Origin: Novosphingobium sp.
GTDB taxonomy: Bacteria; Pseudomonadota; Alphaproteobacteria; Sphingomonadales; Sphingomonadaceae
DNA: 64,000 nucleotides
Direction: 5' to 3'
Assembly (NCBI RefSeq): GCF_027486195.1
Contig: NZ_JAIXPP010000060.1
Span: 1 to 64,000, forward strand
A program made the translations under genes and the position numbers. The notes under the pieces were generated by a model. The model was not told where the DNA came from. It saw only the letters and a list, made by a program, of their open reading frames with translations, and did not search any database. Shown piece after piece: positions 5,650 through 24,679 of this stretch; the first letter of the stretch is position 1, and each line of letters begins with the position of its first letter.

Positions 5650-6279
5650 GTGCCGGTACAAGTTTATCAACCATATCCTCGCTCCTCGTTTTGCGCAGGA
5701 TTGGCTCGCTTGCACCGCGTTCGCATCGCCCCCCTGAACCGAACGATCCGCTGGATGGCGGCGGCCGTTCTGGGCGCGGGCCTTGCCGGTTTCTCGCCCC
5801 CTGCCCTCGCCGCTGCGCCTTCGGTCACGGTCAGCGCAGACCAGGCCTTGCGCTTTGGCAGCTTTTTTACCGATACGACCGGCACACGCACCGTTTCTGC
5901 AACCGGGTCGGTTACAGGTTCGGCCATCATTCCGCTTACAGGAACCTCACCCGGCCCGGCGCAGTTTACCGTCACCTACGATCGCGGTAACAATGCCAAC
6001 ACCAGCTATTCGCTGCTGATCGCGGTGCTGGTTCCCGGCACGGCGAGCCAGGTAAGCGGCGGGGTAACCGGCACCATCGCCAGCTTCGATACCGACCTGC
6101 CGGGCGTGAATGCCCTGCTCCCCGGCCAGACGGCGCAAGTGACACTGACGGGCTGCCAGCGCCGGATCTGCAGCCGCACGTTCCGCGTTGGCGGCACGCT
6201 GCAGGTCGCGCGCACCTCGGGCGGCGCGCAGCTTGCGATTCCAGTACCGATTGTCGTGACCCTGCTGGCCGAGTTGTGA
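5650..6279 (+). CDS. DUF4402-type secreted protein (start may be downstream)
   Basis: Signal peptide AAAVLGAGLAGFSPPALAA, LRFGSFF..GTRTVS motif, beta-rich. Confidence 0.65.
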   Translation: MPVQVYQPYPRSSFCAGLARLHRVRIAPLNRTIRWMAAAVLGAGLAGFSPPALAAAPSVTVSADQALRFGSFFTDTTGTRTVSATGSVTGSAIIPLTGTSPGPAQFTVTYDRGNNANTSYSLLIAVLVPGTASQVSGGVTGTIASFDTDLPGVNALLPGQTAQVTLTGCQRRICSRTFRVGGTLQVARTSGGAQLAIPVPIVVTLLAEL

Positions 6280-16815: not shown

Positions 16816-17811
16816 TCAATCGAGGCCCCATTCCGGAATGAAGCGCGATTGCGGAAAGACTGCGCACGCGGCATCGCGCATCGCGCGCCACTGGGCCGGC
16901 GAATAGCGCCGCGAAAGGTGCAGCAGGGTGTAACAACCCACGCCTGCCATGCGGGCAAGCTCGGCAATCTCCGTCACGGTTGAATGATCGTACCTGCGGG
17001 CAAGTTCGATATCCTCGGGCGTGTACTGCGCTTCGGCATAGAGCGTGCCGACCCCGGCAAGCAGCGGGGCGAGCCGCGCGCGCTCGCCCGCATCGGCGCG
17101 AAAATCGGTCATGTAGGCGGCGCAATCGCCGGGCATGGCGGTGATGACCTGCTCCCGCAAGGCAGCGGCATCGCGTTCGGTCCCGCCGATCATGACAGCG
17201 CGCACCCCCGGATCCTTGAGCGCGGCGAGCCACGGCCCCGGCGCCAGCCCCAGCGCCTTCACCGCCGCCATATCGACAGCGGTGCGATCCGGCTCGCGCA
17301 CCACATAGCCCAGGCTCGTGCCGTGATGGCGCAGCGAAAGCGCGGTGACCGAGGCCTCGGGGGTCGTCAGCACCGGTCCTTCCAGCTTGCGGCACGGTCC
17401 CTCATGCATAACAGCGAACGCTTCGTGCGCCTCAAACCGGAAGGTGCGGACTTCCGCTTCCCCGATATCGTGGACATGCCACGTCGCGGAAAGCTCGCTC
17501 GCATGGTTCCACCAGAACCCCTGAAAGCGGTGGTGCAGAATGCGCGCGGTCCCCGGCGGGCCCCAGATGTGGTTCTCCACCTCGCCGCGCTGGAAGTTCA
17601 TGCGAAAGAACGCATCGAACCCGCTGATGTGGTCCATGTGGAGGTGGCTGAGGAAGAGGTGATCGATCGCGCGGATCTCGCCCGGTGATAGCGCCGCCAA
17701 GGTATCCGCACCGCAATCGAACAACAGGCGGCTGCGGCTCTGCCCGCCATCGGCGGTGACGAGCAGCGCGTTGTCATTCGGCGGAGTGCCGAGGATGCGC
17801 ACATCAAGCAT
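16816..17811 (-). CDS. Metallo-beta-lactamase-fold hydrolase, RNase Z/BN-like
   Basis: LLFDCGADT, SHLHMDHI (HxHxDH), downstream metal-ligand-like residues; start at 17811 overlaps rtcR stop. Confidence 0.8.
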   Translation of the reverse strand: MLDVRILGTPPNDNALLVTADGGQSRSRLLFDCGADTLAALSPGEIRAIDHLFLSHLHMDHISGFDAFFRMNFQRGEVENHIWGPPGTARILHHRFQGFWWNHASELSATWHVHDIGEAEVRTFRFEAHEAFAVMHEGPCRKLEGPVLTTPEASVTALSLRHHGTSLGYVVREPDRTAVDMAAVKALGLAPGPWLAALKDPGVRAVMIGGTERDAAALREQVITAMPGDCAAYMTDFRADAGERARLAPLLAGVGTLYAEAQYTPEDIELARRYDHSTVTEIAELARMAGVGCYTLLHLSRRYSPAQWRAMRDAACAVFPQSRFIPEWGLD

Positions 17812-19396
17812 GGCCGGCGACCTGATCCCAATCGAGCCCGAAGCGGACCAGATACTTGCGCAGCCGGTCGGCATCATTGGTGCTGGCGCGGCGCGTGCGT
17901 GAGGCCGCAAACAGCTTGCGGCCGGCCTCAGACAACGAACGGCTGGCGCGGCATTCCGCCACGACATGCGCGAGTTGCACCCGGTCGAACGGATCGATTG
18001 CGGCAAGGGCTTCGGCATCGAGCAAGGCACAGAGCCCATCGTCCCCACCGGCACCGCTGCCCCACAGGCGTTGCAGTCGCGCGATCTCGGTCGCCACCAC
18101 CTCGCTGTCGATCCGGCCCTTGGGCGAGAAGGTGGCCATGCGCGTCACGCTGGCGGCAAGATCGCGGAAATTGCCCGGCCAGCGCGCCGCCGGGCTCATC
18201 GCGAAGGCGAGGTAGCGCTCGCGGGCCTCCTTGTTGAACATCACCCGCTCGCCTTCGCGTTCAGCGTGGCGATCGAGTTCGTAATCGAGGTTCGGCGCGA
18301 TGTCCTCGCGCCGGTCGGCAAGCCCCGGCAGCGCGAAAGTCCACAAGTTGAGCCGGGCGAACAGGTCTTCGCGGAACGTGCCTTCCGCCACGCAGCGCGC
18401 CAGATCGCGGTTCGTACCGGCGATCAGCTGGAAATCGCTTTGCACCTCGCGGTCGGCTCCGACGGGGAGGAAGCGTTTGTCCTCGATCGCGCGCAGGATC
18501 ATCGCCTGCTCGTCAAGCCCGAGCTCGCCGATCTCGTCGAGGAACAGCATGCCGCCATCGGCGGTGCGCAGCAGGCCCGGCCGATCCGCCGCCGCGCCGG
18601 TGAAGGCGCCCTTGCGGTGGCCGAACAGCGCCGACATCGCACTGTCGCCGCGCAGGGTCGCGCAGTTCACCTCGACGAACTGGCCGCTGACCTGCCGCTT
18701 CAGCTTCTTCAGCTCGAAGATGCGGCGGGCGAGCTGGCTCTTGCCGGCGCCGGTCGGACCCATCAGCAGCATCGGCGCGCGGGTGCGGCCGGCGACCTGC
18801 TCGATCTCGTCTATCATCGTGTTGAACGCGGCATTGCGCGTCTCTATGCCGGACTTGAGGAACGAAGTGCTGGCCTGCGCTTCGCTGGCAAAGCGCGTGG
18901 CGATGCTGTCATAGCGCGAGAGATCGAGGTCGATCACGCTCCACTTGCCCACCGCATCGGGGCCGCCGCGCTGCGGCTGGGTCTGCAGCAGGCGGCCCGG
19001 CAGATAGTGCGCCTCGGTCAGCAGGAACAGGCAGATCTGCGCGACGTGGGTACCGGTGGTGATGTGGACAAGCACGTCCTCGGTATCGGGATCGAACGGC
19101 TGCGCGCGCGCGAAATCGAGCAGCTTGCCGTAAACTTCCTCGAAATCCCAAGCATCGGTGAAGTCGATCACATGCCGCTCGACCTGCGTTTCAGGCGAGA
19201 CCGAGGCGATATCCTCGCTCACCAGTTCAGCGAGGCGGCGGTGGAGCGAGCCGTGGATCATGAGGAAGCGGTCGACCCGCAGGTCCTCGTGCATGCACAG
19301 CCCCACCGAGGGCCGCCACTTCATCCAGCGCGAAGGGCCGAACTTGGCAGCATCGAGAGTCGAGCCGAGGAATCCGATGACGGTGGTGGGCTTCAT
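17804..19396 (-). CDS. rtcR: RtcR: CARF-domain sigma-54-dependent activator of RNA repair
   Basis: N-terminal CARF-like segment (VLVHITTGTHVAQICLFLL), AAA+ domain with GPTGAGKS and GAFTGA motif. Confidence 0.93.
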   Translation of the reverse strand: MKPTTVIGFLGSTLDAAKFGPSRWMKWRPSVGLCMHEDLRVDRFLMIHGSLHRRLAELVSEDIASVSPETQVERHVIDFTDAWDFEEVYGKLLDFARAQPFDPDTEDVLVHITTGTHVAQICLFLLTEAHYLPGRLLQTQPQRGGPDAVGKWSVIDLDLSRYDSIATRFASEAQASTSFLKSGIETRNAAFNTMIDEIEQVAGRTRAPMLLMGPTGAGKSQLARRIFELKKLKRQVSGQFVEVNCATLRGDSAMSALFGHRKGAFTGAAADRPGLLRTADGGMLFLDEIGELGLDEQAMILRAIEDKRFLPVGADREVQSDFQLIAGTNRDLARCVAEGTFREDLFARLNLWTFALPGLADRREDIAPNLDYELDRHAEREGERVMFNKEARERYLAFAMSPAARWPGNFRDLAASVTRMATFSPKGRIDSEVVATEIARLQRLWGSGAGGDDGLCALLDAEALAAIDPFDRVQLAHVVAECRASRSLSEAGRKLFAASRTRRASTNDADRLRKYLVRFGLDWDQVAGHA

Positions 19397-19435
19397 GCGC
19401 TGAATCTATAACTGCTTATACCACGATATACAAAT

Positions 19436-19450
19436 TGGCACACGCCTTGC
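19436..19450 (+). promoter_or_regulatory. Sigma-54 promoter TGGCAC-N5-TTGC
   Basis: Exact -24/-12 match (TGGCACACGCCTTGC) upstream of rsr and divergent from rtcR. Confidence 0.85.
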
Positions 19451-19541
19451 GGAAGCGGCGCGCGCGCTGCCAAGCCGGGTTTCAGAATAACTATAATTTT
19501 AACAGTGCCTTACCACTTTTCTTCGATCTCAACGATCAAAC

Positions 19542-19557
19542 TGGCACGCCCTCTGCA
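19542..19557 (+). promoter_or_regulatory. Second sigma-54-like promoter TGGCACGCCCTCTGCA
   Basis: TGGCACG-N4-CTGCA, one mismatch to TTGCA; 106 bp downstream of the first. Confidence 0.55.
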
Positions 19558-19662
19558 GAAGCATTGGTGTCGGGTCGGTCGAACAGCCCGGCGCACGCGG
19601 AACCGAGGGGCGGCTGGAATGGGCCGGCCGCCCCCAAAGTCCGGACTTTCCGGAGTTGGACG

Positions 19663-21210
19663 ATGGCCAACAAGAACCTTTTTGCTTCGGCGCTCTCGCG
19701 GTTTCTGCCGCGCGCCGACACGATCAACCAGGCGGGCGGATCTGCCTATGCCTATGGCCCTGAAGCGAAGCTCGCGCAGCTGGCCGTGACCGGCACGCTG
19801 GCCGACGGCTTCTATGGCAGCGCGGAAACGCAGCTGGCCGATGTCGTGCTGGCCGCGAAGGACGTCGATCCCGAGTGGGTCGCCAAATGCGCGGTCTATT
19901 CCCGCCAGTCGGGCGCGATGAAGGATATGCCGGCCTTGCTGGCCGCCTATCTCACCGTCGCGGATCCCGATCTTGCGGTGCGCGTGTTCCGGCGCGTGAT
20001 CGATAACGGCCGCATGCTGCGCACCTTTGTGCAGATCATGCGCTCGGGTCAGGTCGGGCGGGCCTCGCTCGGTTCGCGGCCCAAGCGGCTGGTGCGCGAA
20101 TGGCTGGAGACGGCATCGACGGCGCAGCTGATGCAGGCGGCGACGGGGAACGATCCGAGCCTGGCGGACATCGTCAAGATGGTCCACCCGGCCCCGGCCA
20201 CGCCCGAGCGGCGCGCGTTCTATGGCTGGCTGATCGGCAAGCCTTACGACGTGGCTGCGCTGCCGGCGGAGATCGCGGCGTTCGAGGCCTGGAAGCGGGC
20301 GCCGGACGGCGAACTGCCCCCGGTGCCGTTCGAATGGCTGACCGCTTTCCCGCTTGTCGCGGAGCAGTGGGGCGCGCTTTCGGCTCGCATGGGCTGGCAG
20401 GCGCTGCGGATGAACCTCAACACGCTGGCGCGCCACGGTGCGTTCGGCGTGGCCGGGGTTACCAAAGCGGTGGCGGCCCGGCTCTCCGATCCGGCGGCGA
20501 TCGCCCGCGTACGTCCGATGCCTTACCTGTTGATGGTGGCCTTGGACCAGGTGGGAGACGGTGTGCCGCTGGCGGTGCAGGCAGCGCTCGAAAGCGCGCT
20601 GGAGGCATCGCTGGCTGGTGTGCCGAAGCTCGAAGGCCAGGTCGTTGTCTGCCCGGACGTTTCGGGTTCGATGCGCTCGCCGGCAACGGGTGTCCGCAAG
20701 GGTGCCACGTCCAAGGTGCGCTGCATCGACATTGCCGCACTGGTCGCCGCCGCCGTGCTGCGCCGGAACAGCAATGCCCGGGTGATCCCGTTCGAATGCG
20801 ATGTGGTCGATCTGAAGCTCGATCCCCATGCCCGCGTGGCCGTGAATGCGGCGAAGCTGGCGGCGGTGGGTGGCGGCGGGACAAATGTCTCGGCACCGCT
20901 CGCGCTCCTCAACCGGGAGCGGGCGCAGGTCGATACGGTCGTGATCGTCTCGGACAACGAATCCTGGGTCGATGCAAGGCGGCATGGCGCTACGGCGACG
21001 ATGAACGAGTGGAACAAGCTGAAAGCCCGCAATCCGGGCGCGAAGCTGATCTGCATCGACATCCAGCCCTATGGCTCCACGCAGGCAAAAGACCGGGCGG
21101 ATATCATGAATGTCGGTGGCTTCACCGATGCGGTGTTCGATGCAGTGGCGCGCTTTGCAAAAGGCGAGACGCGCGACTGGATCGGGATCGTCCAGAATAC
21201 GGAGGTTTGA
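19663..21210 (+). CDS. rsr: Rsr: TROVE-domain Ro60-like protein
   Basis: MANKNLFASALSRFLPRADTINQAGGSAYAYGPEAKLAQLAVTG; HEAT-like region and C-terminal VWA (VCPDVSGSM); start placed at the conserved methionine rather than 19435. Confidence 0.93.
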   Translation: MANKNLFASALSRFLPRADTINQAGGSAYAYGPEAKLAQLAVTGTLADGFYGSAETQLADVVLAAKDVDPEWVAKCAVYSRQSGAMKDMPALLAAYLTVADPDLAVRVFRRVIDNGRMLRTFVQIMRSGQVGRASLGSRPKRLVREWLETASTAQLMQAATGNDPSLADIVKMVHPAPATPERRAFYGWLIGKPYDVAALPAEIAAFEAWKRAPDGELPPVPFEWLTAFPLVAEQWGALSARMGWQALRMNLNTLARHGAFGVAGVTKAVAARLSDPAAIARVRPMPYLLMVALDQVGDGVPLAVQAALESALEASLAGVPKLEGQVVVCPDVSGSMRSPATGVRKGATSKVRCIDIAALVAAAVLRRNSNARVIPFECDVVDLKLDPHARVAVNAAKLAAVGGGGTNVSAPLALLNRERAQVDTVVIVSDNESWVDARRHGATATMNEWNKLKARNPGAKLICIDIQPYGSTQAKDRADIMNVGGFTDAVFDAVARFAKGETRDWIGIVQNTEV

Positions 21211-21220
21211 AGAAGCGGGT

Positions 21221-21357
21221 CACGGCGAATGCCGGCAGGACTACATGGGATTTGTGGGTCGCGGGTTCGAGTCCCGCCTGCTTTTCGGGGCAGTAGCTCA
21301 GTCGGATAGAGCAACAAACGCCGCGAGGCGGTCGTCTTTCCAATCCTTGTCGCCGTG
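21221..21357 (+). ncRNA. Y RNA-like gene 1 (YrlA-type, permuted tRNA-like module)
   Basis: CACGGCGA/TCGCCGTG terminal stem; GGCGAATGCCGG; T-arm 21261-21277; acceptor-like stem 21278-21283/21288-21293 with UUCG loop; D-arm 21296-21312. Confidence 0.88.
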
Positions 21358-21378
21358 ACCCTTAGCAAGTTTCAGGAA

Positions 21379-21534
21379 TTGCCGTGGCGAATGCCGGTGG
21401 GACTACATCCCATTGCCAGGTCCGACGAGTAAAGCGCCCGCAGCCAGCAATGGCCAAGGGAGATGCGGGTTCGAAGCCCGCCATGGGAATGTAGCTTAAG
21501 GACCGCGTCTCGCCATCCTTCGTCGCCACGGCAA
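21379..21534 (+). ncRNA. Y RNA-like gene 2
   Basis: 12-bp terminal stem TTGCCGTGGCGA/TCGCCACGGCAA; GGCGAATGCCGG; T-arm 21465-21481; 3-bp acceptor-like stem with GGGA loop; degenerate D-arm; extra CCATTGC/GCAATGG hairpin. Confidence 0.82.
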
Positions 21535-21541
21535 ACAGCAA

Positions 21542-21691
21542 TTCACGGCGAATGCCGGGCAAGGACTACATCCTTCAACGATGCAGGCGCAGGTTCGAAT
21601 CCTGCCGGGTCCACTATCTGCGGGCCTGTAGCTTAGCGGAAGAGCGGCGCCCCCTCGGGGGCATGTCTTTCCCACACCTCGTCGCCGTGAA
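21542..21691 (+). ncRNA. Y RNA-like gene 3
   Basis: TTCACGGCGA/TCGCCGTGAA terminal stem; GGCGAATGCCGGG; T-arm 21589-21605; 7-bp acceptor-like stem 21606-21612/21622-21628; D-arm 21631-21645. Confidence 0.87.
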
Positions 21692-21703
21692 CCCTTTTCC
21701 AGC

Positions 21704-21806
21704 GCTGGCGAATGCCGGCGGGACTACATGGTTGGAGGCCGAAAGGCCGAGCGGTTCGAATCCGCCCCGGAGCGATCCGGGATGTCTCGCCAAACCTTGT
21801 CGCCAG
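21704..21806 (+). ncRNA. Y RNA-like gene 4 (minimal: T-arm and acceptor-like hairpin, no D-arm)
   Basis: GCTGGCGA/TCGCCAGC terminal stem; GGCGAATGCCGG; GCGGTTCGAATCCGC; CCCGGA-GCGA-TCCGGG hairpin. Confidence 0.82.
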
Positions 21807-21835
21807 CACCATGATGCAAGCAAAGGAGGTCCACC

Positions 21836-23062
21836 GTGGCCGATACCAGTTTCGAATTCCAGCATGTGCCCGGCGGGGTGCCGATCAAGATGTGGACGCG
21901 CGGCGTGCCGGTTGATGACAAGGCGCGCGAGCAGCTGGCGCGGGCGGCGCAGATGCCATTCGTTTTCAAGCATGTAGCCGCGATGCCGGACGTCCATGTC
22001 GGGATCGGCGCGACGGTGGGATCGGTGATCCCGACCAAGGGCGCGGTGATTCCGGCGGCGGTGGGCGTGGACATTGGCTGCGGCATGATGGCCGCGCGCA
22101 CTTCGCTGATGGCGCACGACTTGCCTGATAGCCTGGAAGGCATCCGCTCTGCCATCGAGCAGGCAGTGCCGCATGGGCGTTCGGTCGGTCGTGGCCAGCG
22201 CGATCACGGTTCGTGGGGTTCGCCCCCGCCCGCGATTGTCGAGGGCTGGGCGGTGCTGGTGCAGCGGTTCGAGGCGATCTGCGCCAAGTTTCCGCGGCTG
22301 AAGAACACCAACAACCTCACGCACCTCGGCACGCTCGGCACAGGCAACCACTTCATCGAGCTGTGCCTTGATACCGAAGGGCGCGTCTGGGTGATGCTCC
22401 ATTCCGGCTCGCGCGGGGTGGGCAATGCCATCGGCACGTTCTTCATCGAGCTGGCCAAGCAGGACATGCGCAAGTGGCATATCAACCTGCCAGACGAGGA
22501 CCTCGCCTACTTCCCGGAAGGGACCGACCACTTCGACGACTATGTCGAGGCGGTGGGCTGGGCTCAGGACTTCGCCGCGCTCAACCGGCGCATGATGATG
22601 GCAAACGTCATCGCGGCGCTGCGGGCGAAGATTGCCAAGCCCTTCGATGCGGAGATGGAAGCGGTGAACTGCCATCACAACTACGTGACGCGCGAAAACC
22701 ACTTCGGCGAGAACGTGCTCGTGACCCGCAAAGGCGCGGTGCGTGCGGCCAAGGGCGTGTTGGGGATCATCCCGGGCTCGATGGGGGCGAAAAGCTTCAT
22801 CGTGCGCGGGCTGGGCAACCCGGAAAGCTTCGACAGCTGCAGCCACGGCGCGGGGCGGGTGATGAGCCGGACCCAGGCCAAGAAGCTGGTGAGCCTCGAT
22901 GAGCATATCGCCGATACCGAGGGCGTGGAGTGCCGCAAGGACGCGGGCGTAATCGATGAAACGCCCCGCGCCTACAAGCCGATCGAAAAGGTGATGGCCG
23001 CGCAGGCCGATCTGGTGGAGATCGTGCATACACTGAAGCAGGTGGTCTGCGTGAAGGGGTGA
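21836..23062 (+). CDS. rtcB: RtcB RNA 3'-phosphate/5'-OH ligase
   Basis: VGVDIGCGMMAARTS, NNLTHLGTLGTGNHFIEL, HSGSRGVGN, NCHHNYV, SCSHGAGRVMSR; AAGGAGGT ribosome-binding site before GTG start. Confidence 0.97.
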   Translation: MADTSFEFQHVPGGVPIKMWTRGVPVDDKAREQLARAAQMPFVFKHVAAMPDVHVGIGATVGSVIPTKGAVIPAAVGVDIGCGMMAARTSLMAHDLPDSLEGIRSAIEQAVPHGRSVGRGQRDHGSWGSPPPAIVEGWAVLVQRFEAICAKFPRLKNTNNLTHLGTLGTGNHFIELCLDTEGRVWVMLHSGSRGVGNAIGTFFIELAKQDMRKWHINLPDEDLAYFPEGTDHFDDYVEAVGWAQDFAALNRRMMMANVIAALRAKIAKPFDAEMEAVNCHHNYVTRENHFGENVLVTRKGAVRAAKGVLGIIPGSMGAKSFIVRGLGNPESFDSCSHGAGRVMSRTQAKKLVSLDEHIADTEGVECRKDAGVIDETPRAYKPIEKVMAAQADLVEIVHTLKQVVCVKG

Positions 23063-23661
23063 TAATGGATTATCGCAGGCTCGATTGCGGCAATCGCCCA
23101 ACCCTTGACCAATTCATGGACGACTGGGGCCGGACTGCTTTCCACGCGGTCCGGCCCCTTGACCCTCGATTGACAGCGATGGCGCGAGCCTTGAGCAAGA
23201 CTCACGTCAATGGGGGCGCTCAGGTTGCTCAGTTTGAGGTCGTCGCAACAGAAGCCGTTGCGTGGGTTCTGACCCGGAATCGGTTGGATAAGTTTGCCTT
23301 CATGGAACGCTTCTTCGAAGCTCCGTCTGTCGCGGCCGAGTTTCCACGTTTGGGTCAAACCAATGAACGCATAGGTGAGTTCGCTGCTAGTTCCGCAGAG
23401 AACTCAGCCACCAATCTTGCCGCCTTGCTACGCAAGGGCGGGGCATATCGGGGATTCAAGGGCACTCAGGACGACGTCGTGAAATTGGCAAACCAGTTCA
23501 TGTCAGCCGTCTGTGAAGCTCGATTTCCCGAGACAACGGCGTGGACCAACGACAGTGCATGGGCGCAGTGGTTTCGCAATGTTGCGTGGGATGCATCATA
23601 TTTCTGGTTCGATACCCGCAGAGGCATCGCAACCATTTTGTTGATTACGGACACTGACTGA
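23059..23661 (+). CDS. Hypothetical protein between rtcB and rtcA (start GTG 23059 or ATG 23065)
   Basis: ORF starts in rtcB stop and ends 1 nt before rtcA start; no family recognised. Confidence 0.8.
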   Translation: MIMDYRRLDCGNRPTLDQFMDDWGRTAFHAVRPLDPRLTAMARALSKTHVNGGAQVAQFEVVATEAVAWVLTRNRLDKFAFMERFFEAPSVAAEFPRLGQTNERIGEFAASSAENSATNLAALLRKGGAYRGFKGTQDDVVKLANQFMSAVCEARFPETTAWTNDSAWAQWFRNVAWDASYFWFDTRRGIATILLITDTD

Positions 23662-23662
23662 C

Positions 23663-24679
23663 ATGATCATCATCGATGGATCGGAAGGCGAAGGCGGGGG
23701 GCAGATGGTGCGCAATTCCTGCGCGCTTTCGCTCGTTACCGGCGAACCTTTCCGGATCGAAAACATCCGCGCCAAGCGCTCCAAGCCCGGCCTCATGCGC
23801 CAGCACGTGACGGCGGTGGAGGCAGCCGCCGTCATCTCGGGTTCGGAATGCACCGGCCTCGCGGTCGGCGGGAGCGAGCTCACGTTCCGTCCGGGGCAAG
23901 TCGTGCCCGGCGAGTATCACTTCGCTGTCGGCACAGCGGGGTCGACCGGGCTGGTCCTGCAGACGGTGTTGATGCCGCTGGTGCTGGCGAACGCGCCCTC
24001 GCGCCTTGTGCTCGAGGGCGGCACGCACAACATGCTCGCGCCGCCGTTCGATTTCATCGAGCGCGCGTTCCTGCCGATCATCAACCGGATGGGGCCGCAA
24101 GTCTCGGCACGCCTCGTGCGCCATGGGTTCTACCCGCGCGGCGGTGGGCGGATCGAGGTGGACATCACCCCTGCCCCGCTCTTGCCGCTGACCTGCACCA
24201 CGCGCGGGCTGCGCACCAGCGAGGCCGCGCAAGTCGTGGTCTCCGGCCTGCCGTTCGGGATTGCCGAGCGGATGCTGGCACGCGTCCGGCGCGATCTTCC
24301 GGACTGGCCGGAAAGCGCCTTCACGCTGCGCCAGCTGCCCGCCGATCAGGGGCCGGGCGTGATCCTGATGCTGGAAGCGCAGCACAGCGAGGTGACCGAA
24401 CTGGTCAGCGGCTTCGGCCAGCTCGGCGTGCCTGGCGAACGCCTCGCCCGCACTTCAGCCGCGCGGATGAACGGCTATCTCGAAGCCTCTGCGTTCGCGG
24501 GGCCGTATCTTGCCGATCAGTTGATCCTGCCCTTCGTGCTGGCAGGCGGCGGCGCGTTCTCGACCGTGAAGCCGAGCCAGCACCTGCTGACCGCGATCGA
24601 CATAGCGCAGCGCTTCACCGGGCGCCGGATCACCATCGAGCAGGCACCGGGCGGGGAGCATCAGGTCACCTTCGGCTAG
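23663..24679 (+). CDS. rtcA: RtcA RNA 3'-terminal phosphate cyclase
   Basis: DGSEGEGGGQMVRNSCALSLVTGEPFRIENIRAKRSKPGL. Confidence 0.96.
   Translation: MIIIDGSEGEGGGQMVRNSCALSLVTGEPFRIENIRAKRSKPGLMRQHVTAVEAAAVISGSECTGLAVGGSELTFRPGQVVPGEYHFAVGTAGSTGLVLQTVLMPLVLANAPSRLVLEGGTHNMLAPPFDFIERAFLPIINRMGPQVSARLVRHGFYPRGGGRIEVDITPAPLLPLTCTTRGLRTSEAAQVVVSGLPFGIAERMLARVRRDLPDWPESAFTLRQLPADQGPGVILMLEAQHSEVTELVSGFGQLGVPGERLARTSAARMNGYLEASAFAGPYLADQLILPFVLAGGGAFSTVKPSQHLLTAIDIAQRFTGRRITIEQAPGGEHQVTFG

What the first reader, a model, noticed from the sequence alone, without database searches (positions are those of the whole stretch)
21251..21318. Unit 1 is a tRNA in circular permutation, cut open at the anticodon and closed at the acceptor end
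In 5'-3' order: TTTGT (21251-21255, anticodon-stem 3' strand), 5-nt variable region GGGTC, T-arm GCGGG-TTCGAGT-CCCGC (21261-21277), acceptor 3' strand CTGCTT, UUCG loop, acceptor 5' strand GGGCAG (21288-21293), TA (positions 8-9), D-arm GCTC-AGTCGGATA-GAGC (21296-21312), A (position 26), ACAAA (21314-21318) pairing with TTTGT. Segment lengths fit a normal tRNA L-shape, but no free acceptor end exists, so it should mimic tRNA without being aminoacylated.
Basis: partly seen in the sequence, partly recalled or inferred. Interest (0 to 1): 0.85.

Follow-up and report, generated by a model that had tools for sequence, protein, structure and literature searches.

The report
Bacterial Y RNAs imitating opened tRNAs
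The reported tRNA-in-a-circle is real, but it belongs to a known kind of bacterial RNA (a Y RNA, which binds the Ro60-like protein Rsr and imitates tRNA); the fresher observation is that it is one of four tandem copies in a tRNA-damage operon, and that copies here and in relatives imitate different parts of tRNA, in some cases a complete anticodon loop.

Summary
Unit 1 is the tRNA-like module of a bacterial Y RNA of the YrlA type (Rfam RF02553, E=3.9e-13), inside an rtcR / rsr / Y RNA / rtcB / rtcA RNA-repair operon of a Novosphingobium-like genome. The circular permutation (opened at the anticodon, closed at the acceptor) is the published YrlA architecture, so unit 1 alone is an ordinary new member.

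Beyond the finding: four tandem Y RNAs follow rsr in the window, and arrays of two to five are usual in relatives. Across 178 units I see several layouts: opened at the anticodon arm (unit 1), opened in the D loop (two subtypes, both with covariation; unit 2), and reduced forms (unit 4). In 42 of 69 anticodon-opened units the nick lies inside the anticodon stem, so a complete 7-nt anticodon loop remains (U33 in 39, A37 in 38), with positions 34-36 variable. Unit 3 is such a near-complete tRNA, loop CUUCAAC. I did not find this described in the papers I could read, but the main primary papers were not available.

Most likely function: Rsr-bound closed tRNA mimics that dock tRNA-handling proteins during tRNA damage. 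A bait or decoy role for anticodon nucleases is a testable rival, not shown.

The parts
21217..21361 (+). Y RNA unit 1 (YrlA type, anticodon-opened)
   Evidence: cmscan RF02553 E=3.9e-13; 12-bp perfect closing repeat
21217..21228 (+). unit 1 outer Ro-binding stem, 5' strand (pairs 21350-21361, 12 bp)
   Evidence: inverted repeat I2, 100% complementary
21350..21361 (+). unit 1 outer Ro-binding stem, 3' strand
21234..21240 (+). unit 1 inner stem GGCAGGA, pairs TCTTTCC 21335-21341 (6 of 7 pairs)
   Evidence: RF02553 alignment
21251..21318 (+). unit 1 tRNA-like module: anticodon-stem strands 21251-21255/21314-21318, T-arm 21261-21277, acceptor 21278-21283/21288-21293 closed by UUCG, D-arm 21296-21312
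   Evidence: sequence; stem covariation in 69 related units
21319..21330 (+). extra hairpin CGCC-GCGA-GGCG in unit 1
   Evidence: sequence
21379..21534 (+). Y RNA unit 2, opened in the D loop, acceptor-like strand in a pseudoknot (class DK)
   Evidence: RF02553 only E=0.056; class covariation; matches D-loop-opened model R1 at 53.7 bits
21408..21413 (+). unit 2 TCCCAT, pairs ATGGGA 21483-21488 (pseudoknot, acceptor-like)
   Evidence: 6 bp; mean helix 4.02 vs 3.22 (sd 0.13) in re-paired controls, 0/2000
21419..21423 (+). unit 2 GGTCC pairs GGACC 21500-21504; split D stem AAGC 21432-21435 pairs GCTT 21494-21497
   Evidence: compensatory changes in class DK
21465..21481 (+). unit 2 T-arm GCGGG-TTCGAAG-CCCGC
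21540..21693 (+). Y RNA unit 3: near-complete tRNA, backbone opened inside the anticodon stem, acceptor closed
   Evidence: RF02553 E=2.2e-5; ARAGORN calls it a tRNA once rotated
21570..21584 (+). unit 3 anticodon arm: ATC + 7-nt loop CTTCAAC (21573-21579) + GATGC; remaining stem pairs from GC 21647-21648
   Evidence: hairpin also present in the MFE fold
21589..21605 (+). unit 3 T-arm
21606..21628 (+). unit 3 acceptor: CGGGTCC + ACTA + TCTGC + GGGCCTG; relatives keep ACCA at this place
   Evidence: CCA in 20 of 32 units with room
21631..21645 (+). unit 3 D-arm GCTT-AGCGGAA-GAGC
   Evidence: sequence
21700..21811 (+). Y RNA unit 4, no D-arm: hairpin 21737-21748, T-arm 21751-21765, acceptor-like hairpin 21766-21781
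   Evidence: RF02553 E=9.4e-7; R1 model 73.4 bits
19435..21210 (+). rsr (Ro60 orthologue); likely true start 19663
   Evidence: Pfam vWA_Ro60, NCBIfam RNA-bind_Rsr, PDB 2nvo E=3.6e-17
17804..19396 (-). rtcR, sigma-54 activator of RNA repair
   Evidence: NF038308 above its cut-off
19436..19450 (+). sigma-54-like promoter TGGCAC-N5-TTGC
   Evidence: a pattern match only
21836..23062 (+). rtcB RNA ligase
   Evidence: Pfam PF01139
23663..24679 (+). rtcA RNA 3'-phosphate cyclase
   Evidence: Pfam PF01137, TIGR03399

Best explanation
Unit 1 is a bacterial Y RNA of the YrlA type. Its long stem binds the Ro60 orthologue Rsr encoded just upstream. Its distal end folds into a tRNA core (T-arm, D-arm, acceptor, part of the anticodon stem) whose two free ends are closed, so that it looks like tRNA to proteins that recognise the tRNA body but cannot be charged or trimmed from a 3' end. 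It is made with Rsr, RtcB and RtcA when RtcR senses cleaved tRNA, and I infer that it docks tRNA-handling proteins (modification enzymes, PNPase or a nuclease) onto Rsr in the tRNA-damage response. Shown here: sequence identity, comparative structure, operon context. Taken from the literature: Rsr and PNPase binding, RtcR activation by 5' tRNA halves, DusA and TruB acting on YrlA. Inferred: that this applies in this organism. The confidence given is for the identity; the docking role alone I would put at about 0.5.
For: RF02553 match E=3.9e-13. Neighbours rtcR, rsr, rtcB, rtcA, conserved in 78, 77 and 64 of 80 rsr loci for rtcR, rtcB and rtcA. Covariation of T and acceptor stems in 69 units. 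Native-order ARAGORN finds no tRNA here, but after rotation 67 of 69 such units are called tRNA against 1 in native order. Published: PMC11472068, PMC8394870, PMC7790460.
Against: All four window units score below the Rfam gathering cut-off of 69 bits. Unfavourable single-sequence fold for unit 1. No expression, binding or modification data. In Salmonella, YrlA was not cleaved by the RecA-dependent nuclease and its role is unknown (PMC7790460).
Confidence: 0.85

Rival explanations
1. The array is a set of baits or decoys for anticodon nucleases: different units present different tRNA parts, and units such as unit 3 keep a whole anticodon loop whose triplet varies between species. The Rsr-bound mimic would titrate the nuclease, or be cleaved and feed RtcR and RtcB.
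For: 42 of 69 anticodon-opened units have a full 5-bp anticodon stem with the nick after position 27-29 and a 7-nt loop; U33 39/42, A37 38/42, entropy 1.6-1.7 bits at 34-36 against 0.44 and 0.55 at 33 and 37. 50 of 237 segments carry such a loop against 2.8 (max 8) in shuffles. Near-identical bodies with different triplets: window unit 3 TCA, L084 GTC, L085 TCC, L086 GTG. Some short Y RNAs keep only this hairpin. The operon responds to anticodon-loop cleavage, and competitive inhibition was already suggested for YrlA (PMC7790460).
Against: Unit 1 itself has no anticodon loop. Salmonella YrlA is not cleaved. D-loop-opened units mostly lack a canonical anticodon loop. Variation could be neutral. 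No nuclease shown in this organism. The intended independent Pseudomonadaceae sample was nearly all already seen; a further gammaproteobacterial locus gave one fitting unit of four.
Confidence: 0.22
2. The units are structured spacers in the operon transcript, cut by tRNA-processing nucleases (RNase P, RNase Z) to separate the rsr and rtcB messages.
For: Located between rsr and rtcB on the same strand; acceptor-like hairpins; many relatives keep ACCA directly before the 5' acceptor strand.
Against: Each unit has its own Rsr-type stem with conserved GGCGAATG...ACTAC, needless for a processing site; the separate layouts are conserved between species.
Confidence: 0.08
3. A permuted tRNA gene that is processed into a functional tRNA.
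For: Rotated unit 3 reads as a complete tRNA; relatives keep CCA.
Against: Unit 1 has no anticodon loop; the window's unit 3 has lost CCA (ACTA); the anticodon stem is split by the Rsr stem; the genome has 45 ordinary tRNA matches; anticodons change between close relatives with the same body.
Confidence: 0.03
4. Degenerate tRNA remnants without function.
For: tRNA resemblance without a normal gene order.
Against: Covariation in the stems and conserved operon position across many genomes.
Confidence: 0.01

Closest known systems
YrlA / bacterial Y RNA (Rfam RF02553; Salmonella Y RNA structure PDB 6CU1)
   Same: Rsr-type stem, T-arm, D-arm, acceptor closed by a loop, anticodon replaced by the Rsr stem, next to rsr and rtcBA; circular permutation of tRNA described in PMC11472068
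   Different: Unit 1 differs only in sequence and an extra hairpin. Units 2 and 4 have other layouts, and unit 3 keeps a whole anticodon loop
Circularly permuted tRNA genes (PMC3978253, seen as a search hit, not read; details from general knowledge)
   Same: 3' half of the tRNA precedes the 5' half, joined at the acceptor side
   Different: Those mature into ordinary tRNAs; here the anticodon arm is interrupted by an Rsr stem and, in unit 1, the anticodon loop is lost
TYMV tRNA-like structure
   Same: tRNA mimic with a non-circular permutation in the ARTEMIS table (PMC11472068); unit 2-type RNAs also place an acceptor-like strand in a pseudoknot
   Different: Viral 3' end with a free CCA; no Rsr stem, no common ancestry claimed
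Permuted tmRNA (RF04321)
   Same: T-arm and acceptor order
   Different: Only 21.8 and 11.6 bits against a gathering score of 47; no tag reading frame sought or seen

Membership tests
YrlA / bacterial Y RNA | Encoded beside an rsr (Ro60) gene | tested here: met
   rsr at 19435-21210
YrlA / bacterial Y RNA | Significant match to the family's sequence-structure model | tested here: met
   E=3.9e-13, 60.1 bits; below the curated gathering score of 69, which anticodon-opened relatives in the same bacterial family pass
YrlA / bacterial Y RNA | Long closing stem with the conserved Ro-binding sequence | tested here: met
   12 bp perfect plus inner stem; GGCGAATGC...ACTACA
YrlA / bacterial Y RNA | tRNA-like module with T-arm, D-arm and closed acceptor | tested here: met
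   covariation
YrlA / bacterial Y RNA | Binds Rsr; carries D and pseudouridine | not testable with these tools
   needs biochemistry
Canonical tRNA gene | Acceptor-D-anticodon-T-acceptor order found by ARAGORN or RF00005 | tested here: not met
   no tRNA at 21251-21318
Circularly permuted tRNA gene | Anticodon loop present in the module | tested here: not met
   unit 1 opens at the anticodon, no U33-containing 7-nt loop; unit 3 does have one
Circularly permuted tRNA gene | Processing into a mature tRNA | not testable with these tools
   needs RNA data
Permuted tmRNA (RF04321) | Significant match to the family model | tested here: not met
   11.6 bits on unit 1, 21.8 bits on unit 3, gathering score 47

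The most novel reading that the evidence does not exclude
Proteobacterial rsr-rtcBA operons carry arrays of Y RNAs that each present a different part of tRNA to the cell, through different opening points (inside the anticodon stem, at the anticodon, in the D loop) and with anticodon triplets that change quickly between species. They would act as Rsr-bound baits or sensors for anticodon nucleases, coupled to RtcR sensing and RtcB/RtcA repair.
Probability: 0.22. Interest if true: 0.85.

Novelty: new variant of a known kind. Interest (0 to 1): 0.47.

Why it matters
Unit 1 by itself adds one more YrlA. The array matters more: the function of Rsr and Y RNAs in RNA-repair operons is an open question, and the pattern of what is kept (T-arm and D-arm cores, split anticodon arms with variable triplets, internal CCA) suggests concrete partners to test. 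The curated YrlA model reports only anticodon-opened units above its cut-off in the ten loci tested, so D-loop-opened and reduced Y RNAs are likely under-annotated.

Tried and rejected
Single-sequence folding as proof: rejected, as unit 1's MFE is not the cloverleaf. Permuted tmRNA and tRNA readings: rejected on scores. Chen 2014, Wang 2018, Sim and Wolin 2018 and Sim 2020 could not be read, so priority of the array observations cannot be settled. Independent test of the anticodon loops in Pseudomonadaceae failed as a test: 13 of 15 segments were already in the set, the other two did not fit. One new gammaproteobacterial genome, G1241 (loci L233, L236), gave one fitting unit of four, judged by hand. 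Searching the phylum with the D-loop-opened model gave four further genomes above 85 bits, but many weak partial hits are probably tandem ordinary tRNAs. Isotype assignment of unit 1 by host tRNA similarity is not decisive (best score 36 against up to 35 between unrelated host tRNAs); only the unit 3 class clearly resembles one host CAT tRNA (window unit 3 scores 39, relatives up to 48). A short protein between rtcB and rtcA is absent from all 80 related loci and was dropped. A Myxococcus phage rsr locus was opened but its neighbourhood was not analysed for Y RNAs.

Full report
What was claimed. All segments are where it says. The same stretch lies inside a 145-nt unit (21217-21361) closed by a perfect 12-bp stem, and the Rfam YrlA model covers 21222-21359 with E=3.9e-13, 60.1 bits against a gathering score of 69.

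Context. On the minus strand rtcR (17804-19396); on the plus strand a sigma-54-like promoter match (19436-19450), rsr (19435-21210, true start probably 19663), four Y RNA units, rtcB (21836-23062), a small unassigned ORF, and rtcA (23663-24679). The nearest named relatives are Novosphingobium. The RNA-repair operon is conserved: rtcR, rtcB and rtcA are found in 78, 77 and 64 of 80 rsr loci (some loci are cut by contig ends).

Known literature. The Salmonella Y RNA structure superposes on tRNA by a circular permutation (PMC11472068). YrlA carries a tRNA-like domain modified by DusA and TruB, binds Rsr and in the RYPER complex PNPase (PMC8394870). The operon is activated when RtcR binds 5' tRNA halves ending in a cyclic phosphate, and a competitive-inhibitor role of YrlA against the anticodon nuclease was proposed there, with the note that YrlA itself was not cut (PMC7790460). 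So unit 1 as interpreted is the known architecture. From my own recollection, the 2018 structure paper also noted the missing CCA end and a kinked anticodon-like stem.

The array. Four units lie in the window; 178 units were extracted from the window and the related loci L084-L138 by the motif GGCGAATG...ACTAC plus a closing stem. A rule-based parse gives 70 anticodon-opened, 61 D-loop-opened, 36 with a T-arm only and 11 without a T-arm. These labels come from my own script; some units are misfiled (for example L114.4 and L126.4 fall under T-only although they show D-arm strands).

D-loop-opened units. In one subtype (21 units) the order is D 3' strand, anticodon hairpin, T-arm, acceptor hairpin, D 5' strand: a tRNA opened in the D loop and closed elsewhere. 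On alignment A1, 97.1% of cells pair, and 13 pairs change on both sides against 7.1 in shuffles (0/500 reach it); slid controls fall to 37-54%. The D stem never varies and so says nothing. A model from it finds 32 loci above 100 bits, which include its own training units. In the other subtype (39 units, window unit 2) the strand before the D 5' strand pairs with the bases just after ACTACA, crossing another helix: mean best helix 4.02 against 3.22 (sd 0.13), 0/2000; nested stems covary too. CCA stands directly or one base after this strand in 21 of 31. Relatedness of sequences inflates all such tests.

Anticodon loops. Numbering the anticodon-opened units as tRNAs, 55 of 69 form a full 5-bp anticodon stem from one strand on each side of the nick, against 15.8 (max 23) after swapping strands. 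In 42 the nick lies after position 27, 28 or 29, so a whole 7-nt loop remains: U33 39/42, A37 38/42, while 34-36 vary. Exact host loops are seen (Asn, Asp, Lys, Thr, Glu). Within the unit 3 class the rotated bodies are 59-65 of 70-72 identical to the window's while the triplet differs: TCA, GTC, TCC, GTG, CTC, TGC. CCA stands at the tRNA position in 20 of 32 units with room; the window's copy has ACTA. Unit 1 belongs to the other type, nick after 30 or 31, without an anticodon loop. After rotation ARAGORN of 69 such units tRNAs, in native order 1; the rotation picks the best anticodon stem, so this is a consistency check, not independent proof.

Mechanism. Established elsewhere: Rsr binding, RtcR activation, modification of YrlA. 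Shown here: structure by comparison and operon membership. Inferred: that unit 1 docks tRNA-body-binding proteins onto Rsr. The bait or sensor idea for units with anticodon loops fits the operon's trigger but has no direct evidence.

Limits. No expression data; the key primary papers were not readable; the pattern of anticodon loops was noticed and counted on the same loci; the intended independent sample was not independent, and one new gammaproteobacterial locus gave one fitting unit of four.

Verdict. Observation confirmed; interpretation right and already known in kind, so unit 1 alone is a new member of a known family; the wider array is a new variant of a known kind as far as I could check.

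Noticed in passing
window 21540-21693: Unit 3 reads, once rotated, as a near-complete tRNA with loop CTTCAAC (triplet TCA), resembling a host CAT tRNA in acceptor and T-arm.
   Followed up: yes
window 21379-21534: Unit 2 is opened in the D loop with a probable pseudoknot TCCCAT/ATGGGA.
   Followed up: yes
L112 3907-3984, L114 3906-3983, L138 and others: tRNA-like genes, several called tRNA-Pro(TGG), lie in the short leader between rtcR and rsr in 8 related loci; another sits after the Y RNA array in L105 at 6138-6215.
   Followed up: partly
L126, unit 4; L010, unit 2: Units resembling leucine tRNAs with a long variable arm, in D-loop-opened and anticodon-opened layout; seen by eye.
   Followed up: no
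window 23059-23661: 200-aa ORF between rtcB and rtcA with no Pfam or NCBIfam match and absent from all 80 related loci.
   Followed up: partly
L199 720-1035: A short Salmonella-like contig deposited as phage carries three Y RNA-like units after rsr, whereas the operon is usually written rsr-yrlBA.
   Followed up: partly
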